From IMG/VR virus record IMGVR_UViG_3300034072_002184, positions 1 to 31,493 of that record: a stretch of DNA of 31,493 nt; one strand, 5' to 3'. Of the stretch, positions 5,688-14,508 are shown in pieces. The notes beneath the pieces are model-generated. The model had not been told where the DNA came from, ran no database searches, and saw only the letters and a program-made list of their open reading frames with translations. Each line of letters begins with the position of its first letter. The stretch's first letter is position 1. Both the position numbers and the translations under genes were made by a program. The DNA comes from a virus.

Positions 5688-5715
5688 CGCACTTGTTAGT
5701 TTTTGATGACACATT

Positions 5716-5733
5716 TTGCTAACGTGTTAGAAC
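5716..5733. repeat. Inverted repeat at repressor 3' end
   Basis: TTGCTAAC, two bases, then GTTAGAAC: the inner arms CTAAC/GTTAG are perfect and overlap the repressor stop codon. Another GTTAG half-site is at 5695-5699. It lies upstream of the leftward promoter, so it may be a further operator site. Confidence 0.4.
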
Positions 5734-6461
5734 AGCACCATTTCCCGGTAGGGAATCACACGGTGGATCATCGCTACGTCCTTCATTGGCACCGGGAACG
5801 ACATGCGAGGGTTGAGTTGCAGCAGCTCAATGAAGGATGCGGTTCGCTTCTGGAGCCGCTTGATCAGGACCGAGTGCATGCGCTCGCCATCGTCGCCGTC
5901 AGGCTTGCGAAGGTACACGACAACATCGTCGCCGATGCGGGGAGTGGTCTTGGGATCGACGTAAACAGGATCTCCTGGATCCCAGCGATCGGACATGGAT
6001 GACCCGACTACCGTCACAGCGTAAACGTCCCGGCGGTGTGCCAAAGCAGCTGGCCGACGTGCATAATCTTGCACGTCATCAAGGAACAGGTCGGTCACCT
6101 CGGCAAACAAAGTTTGACCATCTTCGGTAAACTGAAGGTCGGCCCCCAGTGCCGATCCAACTACTGGCACGTCTCTCAACTCCCCCTCTGCTCTGAACGG
6201 CAGGTTGCGTGCCCTTACTTCCTGAGCGCGACTCTCGGTCGAGGCGTCGGGCGCGGATTGAGCGTAAAATTGTGCAGGCGTCATCCCGATCGCCTCGATC
6301 AACTTCTCGACGATATCGTTGCGCGCGCGGCCGCGTGAGCGAAGGTTGGTGAAGAATGAGCGATTGACGCCAGCCTGAACCAACCACTGGTTGGGTGTTA
6401 GGCTGGCGGGCTTCACCGCCATGAGTTGGCGATAAAGCAAGGGTTCGTCGGGGTTTTCCAT
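5727..6461 (-). CDS. CI-like phage repressor with S24 peptidase domain
   Basis: The 244-aa lysogeny repressor has an N-terminal helix-turn-helix-like region (about residues 15-65, NQWLVQAGVNRSFFTNLRS). The C-terminal S24/LexA-type domain has catalytic Ser155 in GSSMSDRWDPGD and Lys201 in VLIKRL. It would bind operators on both sides and be inactivated by RecA-stimulated self-cleavage. The usual Ala-Gly cleavage pair is not evident in the linker (VPVVGSALGAD), so cleavage may occur elsewhere or not at all. The start at 6461 has no clear ribosome site; Met codons at 6482 and 6518 are alternatives. It is transcribed leftward, between the two operator-bearing promoters. Confidence 0.93.
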   Translation of the reverse strand: MENPDEPLLYRQLMAVKPASLTPNQWLVQAGVNRSFFTNLRSRGRARNDIVEKLIEAIGMTPAQFYAQSAPDASTESRAQEVRARNLPFRAEGELRDVPVVGSALGADLQFTEDGQTLFAEVTDLFLDDVQDYARRPAALAHRRDVYAVTVVGSSMSDRWDPGDPVYVDPKTTPRIGDDVVVYLRKPDGDDGERMHSVLIKRLQKRTASFIELLQLNPRMSFPVPMKDVAMIHRVIPYREMVLF

Positions 6462-6561: not shown

Positions 6562-6804
6562 ATGCTCATCACTGACCAACAGCTGATCGCCAAGATCGAA
6601 GCATTCCTTCAGCGGCATGGCATGGCGCCAACGCGCTTCGGCCGGGAGGCCGCGAAAGAGGCTTCGCTCCTGACCACACTCCGGAACGGGCGGTCCATAT
6701 CGTTGGCTCGTGCGAACAAGATCGTTTCATATATGGATCGATACGACCGCGAGCAGGGCGGGTCACCCGATAGCGAAACGAAAATTATCGGGGAGGCTGC
6801 ATGA
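6562..6804 (+). CDS. Cro-like helix-turn-helix regulator
   Basis: An 80-aa protein divergent from the repressor gene, starting immediately after a -10 box. The core (FLQRHGMAPTRFGREAAKEA, then LLTTLRNGRSISLARANKI) has the layout of a five-helix HTH DNA-binding domain of the Cro/CI superfamily, with the recognition region around residues 25-45. It likely competes with the repressor for the shared operators. No ribosome site precedes the ATG, consistent with leaderless translation. Its end overlaps the next gene (ATGATG). The Cro role follows from position and size. Confidence 0.8.
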   Translation: MLITDQQLIAKIEAFLQRHGMAPTRFGREAAKEASLLTTLRNGRSISLARANKIVSYMDRYDREQGGSPDSETKIIGEAA

Positions 6805-7433
6805 TGGACGACCTTGGCAATGTGCGTCGTTGGCTGAGCCGGTTCGGCATGGATGTGAATAGCAATCCGATGCAGCGCGCCGACCCACTGACGCAGTTTC
6901 TGTCCGATTTCACGGTCCGGGGCGATTGCTATCTGGTCGCCACTTCTGATCTGTACCGGCGCTTCGTGCTCTGGTGCGGATATAGTGGGCAGGCGGTCTG
7001 GTCGATGCGTGGTTTCGATCGGGCGATGTCCGCCGCCGGCTATACAAAGCGGTTCGCCGGCGGCGCGGTCTGGTTAGGGCTGCGTCTGGACGGGGGCGGC
7101 GAGGGTCAGCCAGTGGCGCGCGCCTTGACGACTTCTGCGCGTGCCCAGGACAAGCCCTCTACCAAATGGTCGGCGTATGCCGGGATTGCTTCATGCAAGA
7201 TTATGTCTGCCTCGACCCGTTCAAACACAGCATCGGCGAAGCCAGCGTGGCGGGCATCGAGTTCCTTCAAAATCGCCGTCATGAAGGCAAAGGCGGCGGT
7301 GGCTTCGGTCGTCGTGTCGCTCATGCAGGTCAGCTTTCGTGTAAGTCGTGGAGGCCGCACGATAACCGAAGGGGGCGCGTCCGACAGTCCGGTTCTGAAT
7401 AACCGTCGTCGCGCCCCCGGAGGTGATCGCTGA
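6801..7433 (+). CDS. Standalone winged-helix protein resembling the C-terminal domain of D5-type primases; C-terminal half doubtful
   Basis: Residues about 45-97 resemble the C-terminal domain of the primase-helicase encoded at 11022: both read S-D/E-L-x3-F-x2-W, then a WSxxGF stretch, then AM-x3-GY and a final VWL/WWL. It is probably a small nucleic-acid-binding domain. A GGGGAGG site (6790-6796) precedes the start (6801 or 6804). After about residue 100 the composition turns Ser/Ala/Lys-rich and unlike a folded protein, and the opposite strand carries a better coding frame (7106-7324). The frame runs into the ribosome site of the next gene. The natural protein may once have ended near 7100. 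Confidence 0.6.
   Translation: MMDDLGNVRRWLSRFGMDVNSNPMQRADPLTQFLSDFTVRGDCYLVATSDLYRRFVLWCGYSGQAVWSMRGFDRAMSAAGYTKRFAGGAVWLGLRLDGGGEGQPVARALTTSARAQDKPSTKWSAYAGIASCKIMSASTRSNTASAKPAWRASSSFKIAVMKAKAAVASVVVSLMQVSFRVSRGGRTITEGGASDSPVLNNRRRAPGGDR
7106..7324 (-). CDS. Small antisense gene nested in the rightward operon, 72 aa
   Basis: The frame MSDTTTEATAAFAFMTAILK onward encodes a compact all-helical acidic protein. Its codons carry G or C in third positions more consistently than the overlapping plus-strand frame. The start at 7324 has only a weak ribosome site (GAAAG). The frame could extend to 7360, but the added residues look non-coding. It is the only minus-strand gene in the right early operon, so it needs its own promoter, which I could not identify. 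It may be a small regulator or moron; function unknown. Confidence 0.5.
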   Translation of the reverse strand: MSDTTTEATAAFAFMTAILKELDARHAGFADAVFERVEADIILHEAIPAYADHLVEGLSWARAEVVKARATG

Positions 7434-10491: not shown

Positions 10492-10959
10492 ATGTTGAAT
10501 GAAGTCAGGTTGATTGGAAATGTGGGCGCTGACCCGGAAATTCGCGGCACACAGGGCGGCGACAAGGTTGCGTCGATCCGGCTCGCCACCAGCGAGCGCT
10601 GGAAGGATCGCCAGACCGGCGAGAAGAAAGAGCGCACCGAATGGCACAGCATCGTTGTGTTCGGCCCTCTGGTCCAGGTGGTCGAGCAGTATGTGAAGAA
10701 GGGCAGCAAGCTCTTCATCGGCGGCCAGCTCCGCACGCGCAAATGGTAGGACCAGCAGGGTAATGACCGCTGGTCGACCGAAGTGGTGCTGAGCGGCTTC
10801 GACGCGAAGCTGCAGATGCTCGACAGCGCCGGAGGCAATGGCGGCGGGCGCAACGATTATAGCGGCTATCAGGATGGGCCGGGCTTTGGCGGTTCCGCCG
10901 GCGGGACCGGCGGCGCGCCGAACTTCGAAAACGACCTGGATGATGAAGTGCCCTTCTAG
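10492..10959 (+). pseudogene. ssb: Single-stranded DNA-binding protein gene with in-frame amber codon
   Basis: The frame starts at MLNEVRLIGNVGADPEIR and shows the OB-fold SSB pattern to IGGQLRTRKW. It is then cut by TAG at 10747-10749 (codon 86 of 156). It resumes in the same frame with DQQGNDRWSTEVVL, a Gly-rich linker, and the acidic DDEVPF tip used by SSBs to bind partners. The family normally has Gln at the interrupted position (RKWQDQ), so a single C-to-T change of CAG explains it. The truncated 85-aa product would lack the last OB strands and tail. Alternatives are sequencing error, amber suppression or recent decay. It has a GGGGAAG ribosome site. Confidence 0.9.
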
Positions 10960-11021: not shown

Positions 11022-13775
11022 GTGTCTTCAATCAATCCGTATCTGGTAGCCGCGCTGGAATATGCGGCGCGCGGCTGGCCCGTGTTTCCCTGCAATCCCC
11101 GCACGAAAAAGCCGCTGATCCCGCGCGACAAGGATGAGAAGGGCAAGCCGATCAACGGCACCGGCGGGCTGAGCAAGGCCAGCCTGGACAGCGAGACGAT
11201 CGGCGAATGGTGGGCGCGCTGGCCCAAGGCGATGATCGGCCTGCGCACCGGCTTTGGCCGCCTGTTCGTCCTCGACTTCGATCCGCGCCATGATGATGAC
11301 ACGGGCGAAGAATGGACGCTTGAGCGGCTGAAGGATGAGCTGGAAGAGCAGATGGGGGTGGCGATGCCGGTGTCGCTGTCGTCGCGCACGCCATCGGGCG
11401 GCGTCCATGTCTGGCTGACGTGGCCCGACGATGGCGGCGCGGAGATCCGCAACAGTGGCAGCCTGCCTGAGCATATCGATGTGCGCGGCGATGGCGGCTA
11501 TGTCATCGCGCCGCCCAGCATCAACGCAAATGGCGTCAGTTACCGGTGGCTGCGCGGCGATGCCGATGCCGATGTGGTCGAGGCGCCCGACGCGCTGATC
11601 GCCATATTGCGCAAGCAGCCCAAGGCCGACACCCCCGCCCCGCCCCGGCGGCCGGCACCGGCGGCCGATGGCGATGTGGACGACCAGCTGCGCCGGTATG
11701 CCCTTTCGGCGCTGGAAGCGGAATGCCGCCTGATCGAAACGGCCGCGTCAGGCAGCCGCAATCCGCAGCTGAACAAGAGCGCATTCCAGATCGCCACGCT
11801 GGTCGCCGCAGGCGCCCTGCGCGAGGCGGTAGCGCGGGCGGCGATCGAGGATAGTGCGCGCCGCAACCCCGGGCGCGACGATGATGCCCAGCTGCAAGCG
11901 ACGATCGAGAGCGGCTGGACAGCAGGTCTAGAAAAACCTCGCGACCTCGGAGAGGTCGCGGCCGCTGCACAGGAGCGGGCCGACCGTCGCGCGCGCTACT
12001 CCGCCGGTGGCGCCTCCTTCCGCGCGGGGGCGGGCGAAACTCCTTCCGCTCCTTCCGCTCCCGGACCCTCTCCTGATGACTATGGATTGTCATCCTTCCA
12101 TATGGAGGAAGACGCGCCGGTTGATCAGCGGGGGTCAGGGGGCGTGCCCAAGCGGATCGGCATGGAACCCGATCCCGATCGGGACCGGGCGTGCGCGTTC
12201 CTCCCCCTGACCGATCTGGGCAATGCCGAGCGGTTCAAGGCCCGCTTTGGTCATCTGTTCCGCTTCTGTCGCGAGCTGGGTTGGTTCCGTTGGGATGGCC
12301 GGCGCTGGGCACTGCTGACCGAAGAAAAGGACAAGACGCCGGGCGAAGTGATGTTCGCCGTGTTCCAGACGATCCGCGCCATTCGCAATGAAGCCGAGCT
12401 GGTGGAGATGAGCGGGTGCAAGGATGATTTGCCGGTCGACGCCACGGATGAGGAAAGGCGCGCGGCGCTGGATTTCGTCGTGAAGGCCACCAAGCAGGGC
12501 ATCACCCTGTTTTCCGACACGATCGCGGCGCATGCCAAGTCCAGTGAGGGTGCATCACGCATCGGCGCGGTCGCCGCCCTGGCGAAATCATTTGGCGAAA
12601 TCGCGATCGATGCCAAGCAGCTCGACCATGACCGCATGGCGCTGAACGTCAAGAATGGCACCCTGCGCATCGTCAATAATGGCAATATGCTGGCCGTGCG
12701 GCTGTTCCCGCACAATCGCGAAGACCTGATCACGAAGATGGCGGACGTCGTCTATGACCCCGATGCGAAGGCGCCCAATTATGACGGCTTCTTTGAGCGC
12801 GTCATGCCCGATCCTGATGACAGGCGCTTTCTGCATCAATGGGCTGGCCTTAGTTCGACCGGCGATATCGGCTATCACAAGATGGCGTTTTTCTACGGGA
12901 TGGGCCGAAACGGCAAGTCAACATGGACTGACCTTATCGCCTATATTCTGGGCGACTATTCGCAGGTCATCAAATTCGACACGTTCCTTGAGCAGTCGAA
13001 CAAGCGGAAAGGCTCCGATGCTACGCCTGATCTTGCCCAGCTGCCCGGCGTTCGCTTCCTGCGCACGTCGGAGCCGGAAAAAGGCGCGAAGCTGGCCGAA
13101 GCCCTGATCAAGGAAGTCACGGGCGGCGAGGCTATTCAGGCGCGGCATCTGAACAAGGGCTTCTTCTCGTTCCTGCCATCGTTCAAGCTGACGGCGCAGG
13201 GCAACTATAAGCCCAAGATCACGGGCCATGACGATGGTATCTGGGGCCGTGTGCGCCTGGTGCCGTGGACGGTCCGCATCCCTGACAGCGAGATCGATAT
13301 CCGTCTGCCGGACAAGCTGAAAGCGGAAGCATCCGGCGTCCTCAACCGGATGATGGATGGCCTGCTGGACCTGAAAATGAACGGGCTGACGGAGTCCGCC
13401 AACGTCAAGGCGGCGACGCAGAAGTATCGCGAGGCCAGCGACCAGCTGGGCAAGTTCCTTCGCGACTGTACGGCCGACAAGGATGGTGCGCGAACGCGAT
13501 CCTCCGAGCTGCTGGAGATCTTCAACGAATGGGTGCGCGAGAGCGGTGCGGCCGAATGGTCCGCGCAGGGCTTCGCCAAGGCCATGGAGGATCGCGGCTA
13601 TGAGCGGAAGACGTCGAACGGCGTCTGGTGGCTCGACATCGAAGCGACCGTCGAGGTGGCCGACATCAAGGCCGGGCGCTTCGGGTCGCAGGACAAGGCT
13701 ACCGAGCCGCCTCCCGAACCCTCATCGCCTGCGGCGCCGGTGGACGATCCCGACGATACCACCCCGCCCTTCTGA
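11022..13775 (+). CDS. Bifunctional primase-polymerase and D5-type SF3 helicase
   Basis: A 917-aa replication initiator. The N-terminal PrimPol (AEP) domain, residues about 5-200, has the motifs VLDFDP (Asp85, Asp87), PSGGVHVW (Ser125-His129) and HIDVRGDGGY (Asp153). A disordered linker follows at 310-375. Then comes the D5_N region (about 400-600) and the SF3 helicase with Walker A GMGRNGKST (Gly626-Lys632). A C-terminal winged domain (about 830-875) resembles the 6801 protein. It would open the origin, prime and unwind DNA. The start is GTG behind a G-rich site. The linker DNA holds four copies of a heptamer that also clusters just downstream of the gene. Confidence 0.95.
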   Translation: MSSINPYLVAALEYAARGWPVFPCNPRTKKPLIPRDKDEKGKPINGTGGLSKASLDSETIGEWWARWPKAMIGLRTGFGRLFVLDFDPRHDDDTGEEWTLERLKDELEEQMGVAMPVSLSSRTPSGGVHVWLTWPDDGGAEIRNSGSLPEHIDVRGDGGYVIAPPSINANGVSYRWLRGDADADVVEAPDALIAILRKQPKADTPAPPRRPAPAADGDVDDQLRRYALSALEAECRLIETAASGSRNPQLNKSAFQIATLVAAGALREAVARAAIEDSARRNPGRDDDAQLQATIESGWTAGLEKPRDLGEVAAAAQERADRRARYSAGGASFRAGAGETPSAPSAPGPSPDDYGLSSFHMEEDAPVDQRGSGGVPKRIGMEPDPDRDRACAFLPLTDLGNAERFKARFGHLFRFCRELGWFRWDGRRWALLTEEKDKTPGEVMFAVFQTIRAIRNEAELVEMSGCKDDLPVDATDEERRAALDFVVKATKQGITLFSDTIAAHAKSSEGASRIGAVAALAKSFGEIAIDAKQLDHDRMALNVKNGTLRIVNNGNMLAVRLFPHNREDLITKMADVVYDPDAKAPNYDGFFERVMPDPDDRRFLHQWAGLSSTGDIGYHKMAFFYGMGRNGKSTWTDLIAYILGDYSQVIKFDTFLEQSNKRKGSDATPDLAQLPGVRFLRTSEPEKGAKLAEALIKEVTGGEAIQARHLNKGFFSFLPSFKLTAQGNYKPKITGHDDGIWGRVRLVPWTVRIPDSEIDIRLPDKLKAEASGVLNRMMDGLLDLKMNGLTESANVKAATQKYREASDQLGKFLRDCTADKDGARTRSSELLEIFNEWVRESGAAEWSAQGFAKAMEDRGYERKTSNGVWWLDIEATVEVADIKAGRFGSQDKATEPPPEPSSPAAPVDDPDDTTPPF
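12015..12100 (+). repeat. Heptamer cluster inside the primase linker
   Basis: Four copies of TCCTTCC (12015-12021, 12041-12047, 12050-12056, 12093-12099) within 86 bases of coding sequence for the disordered linker. They match the repeat seen nine times at 13780-14056. Whether they are bound or just reflect codon use of a Ser/Pro linker is unresolved. Confidence 0.5.
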
Positions 13776-13779
13776 CGAT

Positions 13780-14056
13780 TGGAAGGATTAGTCCTTCCAC
13801 GGAAGGAGCCATTTGGAAGCAGCGGAAGGAGCGCGAGGCGTGGTTTTCTGCGGGTTTGGAAGGAGTGGAGAGAGGATCAGAGGTGCGCCCCACATACATG
13901 CACATGCGCGCATGTGTGCGCGATACGGCCCCTATTTATCCTTCCATGTCCTTCCATCCTTCCAAATTCATCCTGTCCAATATCCATAACCATATGCAAT
14001 CATTGAGGAATATCGGATCATGAAAGGTAGCGGACGGCGGTGGCTAACTCCTTCCA
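13780..14056. repeat. Heptamer array, candidate phage replication origin
   Basis: GGAAGGA occurs at 13781, 13801, 13824 and 13858, and its complement TCCTTCC at 13792, 13939, 13949, 13957 and 14049 (the last just inside the next gene). Positions 13780-13799 form an 8-bp hairpin with a 4-base loop. Four right-side copies share the extended form TCCTTCCA. The forward copies lie left and the reverse copies right of a 32-base alternating tract. Direct downstream placement of a primase-helicase gene is typical of a phage origin. The 13776-14019 stretch holds no convincing gene. Confidence 0.6.
13891..13922. other. 32-base alternating pyrimidine-purine tract with 16-bp palindrome (Z-DNA prone)
   Basis: Sixteen consecutive pyrimidine-purine steps, mostly CA, TG and CG, run without interruption. 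Within them 13901-13916 is a perfect palindrome (CACATGCG and its complement). Such tracts readily adopt left-handed or cruciform forms under negative supercoiling. It sits centrally between the oppositely oriented heptamers. Confidence 0.6.
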
Positions 14057-14508
14057 CCGCAGCAATGGTGGAAGCGGGCGTCCTTACGGCCGACTTTTGG
14101 GACTTCGACAGGCTGGAAGCGCGGCTCGTGGAGGCAATGCAATTCCAGTGGCGCACTGAGGGCGGCACCTGGGGCTTTGCCAGCGACGGGCCGTGGCATC
14201 TGATCGTGCGGGACTGGTGGGACTGGGCCGCGCATGAGGACAAGCCGGTGCCGCGCATCCCGCTGTCGCGTGAACAATTGAAGCGGATGGAAGAGGCGAC
14301 GGCTTGGCTGGCCTATGCGCCGGAACGTGATCGGAAGCTGGTGGTGCTGGCCATCACGGCGCTGGCAGCGGGGCGCAAGGTGGTGCCGTGGCGCGCGCTA
14401 TTGAAGCCGATGCAGATGAAGCGGGGCGCTGACGGCTTGCGCATGCGCTATGGCCGCGCTTTAAACTGCATTTGCGATAGCCTGAATGCCGCAGAAACGC
14501 GCGCATAG
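14020..14508 (+). CDS. Hypothetical protein, 162 aa
   Basis: Starts at MKGSGRRWLTPST after a GAGGA site. The sequence is Trp-rich in the middle (WHLIVRDWWDWAAHEDKPV) and ends with a basic helical segment (KRGADGLRMRYGRALNCICD) that could be DNA-binding, faintly like the DUF6362 phage family, which is a weak impression. It contains the last heptamer copy near its start. It is the last gene before the strong terminator at 14640, so it closes the early/replication operon. Phage genes in this place sometimes regulate late genes, but no direct evidence exists here. Confidence 0.7.
   Translation: MKGSGRRWLTPSTAAMVEAGVLTADFWDFDRLEARLVEAMQFQWRTEGGTWGFASDGPWHLIVRDWWDWAAHEDKPVPRIPLSREQLKRMEEATAWLAYAPERDRKLVVLAITALAAGRKVVPWRALLKPMQMKRGADGLRMRYGRALNCICDSLNAAETRA

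What the first reader, a model, noticed from the sequence alone, without database searches (positions are those of the whole stretch)
13780..14056. Candidate phage origin: nine copies of one heptamer around a Z-DNA-prone tract
GGAAGGA or its complement occurs nine times in 277 bases (chance expectation for one 7-mer on both strands is about 0.03). The copies are arranged symmetrically: forward ones mainly to the left, reverse ones to the right, with an 8-bp hairpin at 13780-13799. In between lies the 13891-13922 tract. The site is directly downstream of the primase-helicase gene. I know of no named origin with this repeat.
Basis: partly seen in the sequence, partly recalled or inferred. Interest (0 to 1): 0.75.

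Follow-up and report, generated by a model that had tools for sequence, protein, structure and literature searches.

The report
Phage replication origin with paired repeats
Right behind its replication-helicase gene this bacterial virus carries a compact DNA start site for copying its genome, built from repeated docking words, a strand-opening patch and a left-handed-DNA-prone stretch, and the same design recurs across dozens of related phages with docking words that change in step with the helicase family.

Summary
Nine GGAAGGA heptamers lie at 13781-14055, starting 5 nt after the stop codon of a PrimPol/D5 helicase gene; local shuffles give a mean of 0.07 and a maximum of 2. In 44 of 50 related loci the densest 7-mer cluster of the whole locus starts within -60 to +400 nt of the helicase stop. 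The repeat is clade-specific: TGGAAGG(A/G), TGGGAGG(A/G) or TGCAAGGG. It follows the helicase tree with the minimum of 2 changes, and it stays when the primase type or terminase family is swapped. The site also holds the phage's most AT-rich 60 bp (13965-14019). The Z-prone tract is conserved as purine-pyrimidine alternation rather than as sequence: transitions exceed transversions 534:121 there, against 2859:4388 in its flanks. The architecture matches phage P4 crr and PICI/SaPI origins. The helicase's predicted C-terminal winged helix resembles the P4 origin-binding domain (1KA8, Z 7.6), and the clade-varying residues sit in its wing. Best model: a self-loading SF3 helicase binds the iterons and opens the adjacent AT-rich segment. 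This is a new variant of a known kind.

The parts
11022..13775 (+). PrimPol + D5/P4-family SF3 primase-helicase, proposed initiator
   Evidence: Pfam Prim-Pol and D5_N; TIGR01613 P4-family primase C-term 219 bits vs cut-off 108.7; PHROG 1156
13440..13652 (+). C-terminal winged-helix domain of the helicase, proposed iteron-binding domain
   Evidence: AlphaFold2 model, pLDDT about 80-86 in this part; structural match to P4 origin-binding domain 1ka8, Z 7.6, 3.1 A over 79 residues, and to C-termini of AsfvPrimPol
13614..13622 (+). wing codons S-N-G; SNG with TGGAAGG, SN(V/F) or SDV with TGGGAGG, SHG with TGCAAGG
   Evidence: alignment A3/A4 and tree; loop between the two strands of the model
13780..13799 (.). 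inverted iteron pair TGGAAGGA-N4-TCCTTCCA just after the helicase stop
   Evidence: conserved in relatives; P4 crr has the same element, GGTGAACA-N6-TGTTCACC, just after alpha and its terminator
13781..13864 (.). left iteron array (heptamers at 13781+, 13792-, 13801+, 13824+, 13858+)
13845..13853 (+). conserved motif TTTCTGCGG directly upstream of the last left iteron
   Evidence: TTTNTGCG within 300 nt after the helicase stop in 26 of 50 loci versus 1.5% of background windows; invariant columns in alignment A1
13891..13922 (.). alternating purine-pyrimidine (Z-DNA-prone) tract
   Evidence: 34 of 50 loci at or above the 99th percentile of background alternation; transition-only drift in relatives
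13939..13963 (-). right iteron array, three copies 8-10 bp apart (13939, 13949, 13957)
13965..14019 (.). AT-rich segment (36% GC), proposed DNA-unwinding element
   Evidence: second-lowest 60-bp GC window of the record; in relatives the segment after the helicase is the locus minimum in 31 of 48
14049..14055 (-). outer iteron, inside the next ORF
   Evidence: TCCTTCCA invariant here in all eight loci of A1
12015..12099 (-). four further heptamers in the PrimPol-helicase linker; uncertain, may be a 9-nt coding repeat (TCCTTCCGC)
14020..14508 (+). downstream gene, weak DUF6362 (below cut-off), PHROG 6836; not part of the origin

Best explanation
The region 13780-14056 is the phage's origin of replication (P4/PICI-like). 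The primase-helicase made from 11022-13775 binds the GGAAGGA iterons through its C-terminal winged helix and loads as rings from the converging arrays. It opens the adjacent AT-rich segment 13965-14019 and primes there with its own PrimPol domain, and the host polymerase with the phage beta clamp and SSB extends the primers. The alternating purine-pyrimidine tract between the arrays would tune this by absorbing or releasing negative supercoiling, or by serving as a primer-start zone. Shown here: the anatomy, its conservation, the iteron-helicase linkage and the AT-rich segment. Inferred: binding, ring loading, melting, priming and the role of the tract.
For: (1) The cluster cannot be chance. 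(2) In 44 of 50 loci with a related helicase, the densest 7-mer cluster of the whole locus lies at the helicase 3' end, over protein identity down to about 33%. (3) The iteron core is clade-specific and changes only twice on the helicase tree, the minimum. (4) The iterons stay when the PrimPol is replaced by a CHC2/DnaG-type primase (L007, L011) and when terminase large subunits belong to different families (PHROG 9 versus PHROG 15), so they go with the helicase. (5) The site holds the locus's lowest-GC 60-bp window in 31 of 48 loci and is within the lowest 1% in 45 of 48. (6) In P4 the cis-required region crr, with type 1 repeats, lies directly downstream of alpha. PICI origins are two iteron sets flanking an AT-rich region 3' of rep, and one drove plasmid replication (PMC6092414). 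The D5-type helicase Cch2 binds iterons downstream of its own gene through its C-terminal domain (PMC7581432). (7) The C-terminal domain models as a winged helix resembling 1ka8.
Against: No binding or replication data exist for this phage. GC skew does not change sign at the site. The iteron-wing correspondence rests on only two independent changes. The 1ka8 match (Z 7.6) is within the range that a common winged-helix arrangement can give. Intergenic DNA is generally AT-richer, which inflates point 5. Some relatives (L041, L042, L061) have few exact repeats, and L053 and RR1-A carry the array 0.9-1.9 kb further downstream.
Confidence: 0.88

Rival explanations
1. The repeats are terminase binding sites (cosB/pac-like), since HNH, TerS and TerL genes lie about 1-2 kb downstream.
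For: HNH and terminase genes follow; in RcapNL the annotated cohesive overhang lies about 300 bp after its array.
Against: The same repeat occurs with two unrelated terminase families, PHROG 9 and PHROG 15. The repeat sequence follows the helicase tree. P4 crr is also by the helicase gene, and terminase genes are not adjacent there.
Confidence: 0.04
2. The repeats are operators for a regulator, for example the downstream DUF6362-like protein acting as a late-gene switch.
For: The array lies between the early and late regions, and the outer iteron lies in the regulator-like gene.
Against: No sigma-70-like promoter was found there. The downstream gene differs between carriers (L035 versus L057 versus L047) while the array stays with the helicase. 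The number of copies and the AT-rich segment are unusual for an operator.
Confidence: 0.05
3. pRN1-type origin: the whole region is extruded as a large stem-loop, and the structure rather than iteron binding is what the initiator recognises.
For: pRN1 needs a 100-nt stem-loop downstream of its PrimPol-helicase, and a similar one was proposed for phage BIP-1 (PMC4234260). The strand 13776-13970 folds better than shuffles, z = -3.7, because left and right iterons pair. BPP-1 has inverted ACGAGGCAA repeats about 470 bp after its primase.
Against: Here the repeated words themselves are conserved, also as direct repeats 8-10 bp apart, whereas the pRN1 stem sequence is not conserved. Folding follows trivially from inverted iterons.
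Confidence: 0.12
4. A chance or mutational repeat (minisatellite), with the tract a GC-rich microsatellite.
For: A 9-nt coding repeat with the same word exists in the gene linker.
Against: Conservation across dozens of diverged loci with divergent spacers, shuffle tests, and transition-only drift of the tract.
Confidence: 0.01

Closest known systems
Bacteriophage P4 alpha/crr/ori system
   Same: P4-family SF3 helicase with a C-terminal winged helix; short repeats in both orientations placed directly downstream of the helicase gene, starting with an inverted pair
   Different: Iteron TGGAAGG(A/G) instead of GGTGAACAG; PrimPol instead of Zn-ribbon/Toprim primase; no second distant ori array found; central alternating GC-rich tract; carried by a complete temperate phage rather than a satellite
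PICI / SaPI rep-ori origins (PMC6092414)
   Same: Two sets of iterons around an AT-rich segment immediately 3' of the replication initiator gene
   Different: Self-sufficient tailed phage with structural and packaging genes; extra Z-prone tract and TTTCTGCGG motif between the arrays. [quoted passage not shown]
SCCmec Cch2 and its putative origin (PMC7581432)
   Same: D5-type helicase whose C-terminal domain binds short repeats downstream of its own gene
   Different: AAGTG repeats, three copies, separate primase CCPol-MP, not a phage
pRN1 ORF904 and its downstream stem-loop (PMC4234260)
   Same: PrimPol + SF3 helicase + winged helix, with the origin immediately downstream of the gene
   Different: pRN1 has no iterons and no specific binding was detected; here the iterons are the conserved feature

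Membership tests
P4 alpha-type origin/initiator | P4-family primase C-terminal/SF3 helicase | tested here: met
   TIGR01613 219 bits, cut-off 108.7; D5_N 69 bits
P4 alpha-type origin/initiator | C-terminal winged-helix origin-binding domain | tested here: inconclusive
   Model matches 1ka8 at Z 7.6, 3.1 A, 79 of 100 residues, but Z under 8 can be a common arrangement; Pox_D5 not detected in this domain of the window protein
P4 alpha-type origin/initiator | type 1 repeat GGTGAACAG | tested here: not met
   No exact copy in the window and no one-mismatch copy near the site
P4 alpha-type origin/initiator | Zn-ribbon/Toprim primase fused to the helicase | tested here: not met
   PrimPol PF09250 instead; P4 alpha has Zn_Ribbon_Prim and Toprim
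P4 alpha-type origin/initiator | repeat-bearing cis region directly downstream of the helicase gene | tested here: met
PICI/SaPI-type rep-ori | two iteron sets flanking an AT-rich region immediately 3' of rep | tested here: met
   Arrays 13781-13864, 13939-13963 and 14049 with AT-rich 13965-14019
PICI/SaPI-type rep-ori | rep-ori segment drives autonomous plasmid replication | not testable with these tools
   Needs a bench test
PICI/SaPI-type rep-ori | element is a satellite without its own packaging/capsid set | tested here: not met
   Window encodes its own terminase large subunit; the ORFs after it include portal/protease/capsid-like proteins by eye
pRN1-type stem-loop origin | PrimPol + SF3 helicase architecture with cis element downstream | tested here: met
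pRN1-type stem-loop origin | about 100-nt stem-loop required, no iterons | tested here: inconclusive
   Strand folds with z -3.7, but through the iterons, which pRN1 lacks

The most novel reading that the evidence does not exclude
A widespread phage origin class in which an alternating purine-pyrimidine, Z-DNA-prone tract is a selected working part. It is kept as alternation while its sequence drifts, it lies between converging iteron arrays of a self-loading helicase, and it acts either as a supercoil switch next to the AT-rich melting site or as a dense GTG/CAC primer-start zone for the PrimPol. Iteron identity is read by the wing of the helicase's winged helix, so the iteron could be predicted from protein sequence.
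Probability: 0.35. Interest if true: 0.75.

Novelty: new variant of a known kind. Interest (0 to 1): 0.6.

Why it matters
Replication origins of most temperate phages outside a few models are unmapped. Here a simple rule (look directly downstream of a D5/P4-type helicase gene for converging iterons around a low-GC patch) located the candidate origin in about 50 phage and prophage loci, including named phages such as RcapNL, AmM-1, Pan4, Mae-JY28 and phi105. It also extends to complete phages a layout that was said in 2018 to be unique to phage-inducible islands. The conserved alternating tract gives a rare, directly testable case of selection on a non-B DNA property at an origin, and the iteron-wing correspondence is a concrete hypothesis for origin specificity and compatibility.

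Tried and rejected
GC skew: no sign change at the site, uninformative. blastn of the intergenic region against named phages and plasmids: no match, so its DNA is not in those collections at that sensitivity. Strict pattern in 398 Sphingomonadaceae-family genomes: only the already known Sphingobium MAG, so this subclade is rare there. The extra pattern hit L014 is a lone match in an unrelated AT-rich 95-kb virus; taken as chance. Terminase-site and operator readings rejected as above. RNA element: no Rfam match; no terminator tail at the 13780 hairpin. PrimPol presence versus strong alternation: suggestive (median score 21 versus 9) but only 4-5 independent contrasts, not significant. Weak Foldseek hits of the winged helix to Z-alpha Z-DNA-binding domains (E about 0.4) are generic winged-helix similarity and not used. 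The chance level for 'densest cluster near the stop' was not modelled formally; by length it is about 4% per locus.

Full report
OBSERVATION. The nine GGAAGGA/TCCTTCC heptamers are at the stated place, starting 5 nt after the stop of the 917-aa primase-helicase ORF 11022-13775. They are far beyond chance: mean 0.07 and maximum 2 in 5000 local dinucleotide shuffles, and no 7-mer of any kind exceeds 6 per 400 bp in 60 shuffles of the window. The record is a 31,493-b IMG/VR virus record with an integrase, an S24-type repressor, a beta clamp, SSB and terminase. Four further copies lie inside the gene at 12015-12099 and may be a coding repeat. The heptamer is not enriched in the two bacterial genomes that carry related prophages.

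CONSERVATION. Relatives of the helicase were fetched from viral contigs, genome contigs and named phages. The close set aligns through the region with invariant iterons, an invariant TTnnTGCGnnTTTGGA block and a GC-rich alternating centre, although the spacers have diverged. Without assuming a motif, the densest 7-mer cluster of each locus starts within -60 to +400 nt of the helicase stop in 44 of 50 loci. Three of the six exceptions are loci where a CG-rich coding repeat wins, and L053 and RR1-A carry the array 0.9-1.9 kb downstream. Named phages with their own words at the same place include RcapNL (GGGACG), Pthi1 (GGGCCTGA-like), AmM-1 (AGGGAGGC), Pan4 (GGGAAGAT), Mae-JY28 (TGGAAGG) and phi105 (AGTAACA). 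Microbacterium phage QMacho, whose polymerase gene follows the helicase directly, shows no such cluster.

THE REPEAT GOES WITH THE HELICASE. Three iteron cores occur: TGGAAGG(A/G), TGGGAGG(A/G) and TGCAAGGG. On a tree of the helicase without its C-terminal domain they need two changes, the least possible. L007 and L011 have a separate CHC2/DnaG-type primase in place of the fused PrimPol, yet keep the array. Terminase families differ among carriers (PHROG 9 versus 15), and so do the downstream genes. The array therefore belongs to the helicase and not to priming, packaging or the next gene.

THE LIKELY READER OF THE REPEAT. The helicase C-terminus models as a winged helix. Its structural neighbours include the P4 origin-binding domain 1ka8 (Z 7.6, 3.1 A, 79 residues), the C-terminus of AsfvPrimPol, and RFX DNA-binding domains; Z below 8 is not proof of kinship. 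The loop between the last two strands, the wing, reads SNG (once SDG) in the TGGAAGG clades, including the distant Mae-JY28, L053 and L060. It reads SNV, SDV or SNF in the TGGGAGG clade and SHG in the TGCAAGGG clade. With only two independent changes this is a hypothesis, not a demonstration.

THE OPENING SEGMENT AND THE Z-PRONE TRACT. The stretch 13965-14019, between the right array and the outer iteron, has 36% GC in a 62% GC phage and holds the second-lowest 60-bp window of the record. Across 48 loci this neighbourhood holds the locus minimum in 31 and is in the lowest 1% in 45. Intergenic position contributes to that. The tract 13891-13922 lies between the left and right arrays. In 34 of 50 loci the region after the helicase reaches the 99th percentile of background alternation. 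In a set of 15 aligned relatives the tract varies at 23 of 32 columns, but only 9 of these switch purine/pyrimidine class, against 125 of 156 variable flank columns (Fisher p = 1e-4); pairwise transitions:transversions are 534:121 in the tract and 2859:4388 in the flanks. Alternation, not sequence, appears to be retained. It is weak or lost in several lineages (L032, L055, L057-L060, L007, L008), so it is not universally required. It is stronger where a PrimPol is present, but the contrast is not significant.

MECHANISM. By the precedents, a self-loading SF3 initiator binds iterons through its C-terminal domain and opens an AT-rich segment: P4 alpha with crr directly downstream of its gene, PICI/SaPI rep-ori, for which a cloned rep-ori segment replicated a plasmid (PMC6092414), and Cch2, whose C-terminal domain binds repeats downstream of its gene (PMC7581432). 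I infer the same here: binding at the arrays, ring assembly facing the centre, melting at 13965-14019, priming by the PrimPol domain, then extension by host polymerase with the phage clamp and SSB. The tract could store or release supercoiling next to the melting site. Alternatively it could offer GTG/CAC starts for the PrimPol (the pRN1 primase starts at GTG, PMC4234260, although mutating those sites in pRN1 was tolerated). Both tract roles are speculation.

PLACE AMONG KNOWN SYSTEMS. It works like P4 crr and PICI origins, but it is not a P4-type member by repeat sequence or primase type, nor a PICI, since it is a phage with its own terminase. The pRN1 stem-loop proposal for PrimPol helicases may describe the same architecture, because converging iterons fold into a stem-loop and BPP-1 carries inverted repeats behind its primase. 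I found no paper in the held library naming this repeat or this origin in tailed phages; subscription literature was not searchable.

VERDICT. Novelty: a new variant of a known kind. Binding, melting and replication remain to be shown.

Noticed in passing
window 6801-7433: A separate early gene whose product has a Pox_D5-like winged-helix domain, 35% identical to the C-terminal domain of the primase-helicase; possibly a competitor or regulator at the origin.
   Followed up: no
window 12015-12099; L006 6020-6090: GGAAGGA copies in the PrimPol-helicase linker as a 9-nt tandem (TCCTTCCGC, coding P-S-A repeats), four in the window and five in L006; could be extra iterons or a coding minisatellite.
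   Followed up: partly
L007 2887-4740 and L011 5452-7302: Close helicase relatives carry a separate CHC2/DnaG-type primase where the window has a fused PrimPol: a primase swap with helicase and origin kept.
   Followed up: yes
window 10492-10749: The SSB gene has an in-frame stop after 85 codons in this record; full-length copies exist in relatives L005 and L006, so the protein may be truncated or the record may hold an error.
   Followed up: partly
L010 8001-10425: The primase-helicase of the Sphingobium MAG is split across frames, suggesting a decayed prophage or a sequencing error, although its iteron array is intact.
   Followed up: no
L073 (BPP-1), about 470 bp after the primase stop: Inverted ACGAGGCAA repeats around a short alternating centre, possibly the same origin layout in a Bordetella phage.
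   Followed up: partly
L024 (RcapNL) 5690-5979: Inward-pointing GGGACG repeats with an alternating centre lie between the primase gene and the annotated cohesive end, so origin and cos are neighbours.
   Followed up: partly
window 13845-13853: TTTCTGCGG motif at a fixed place before the last left iteron in about half of the loci; function unknown, perhaps a host-factor or second initiator contact.
   Followed up: partly
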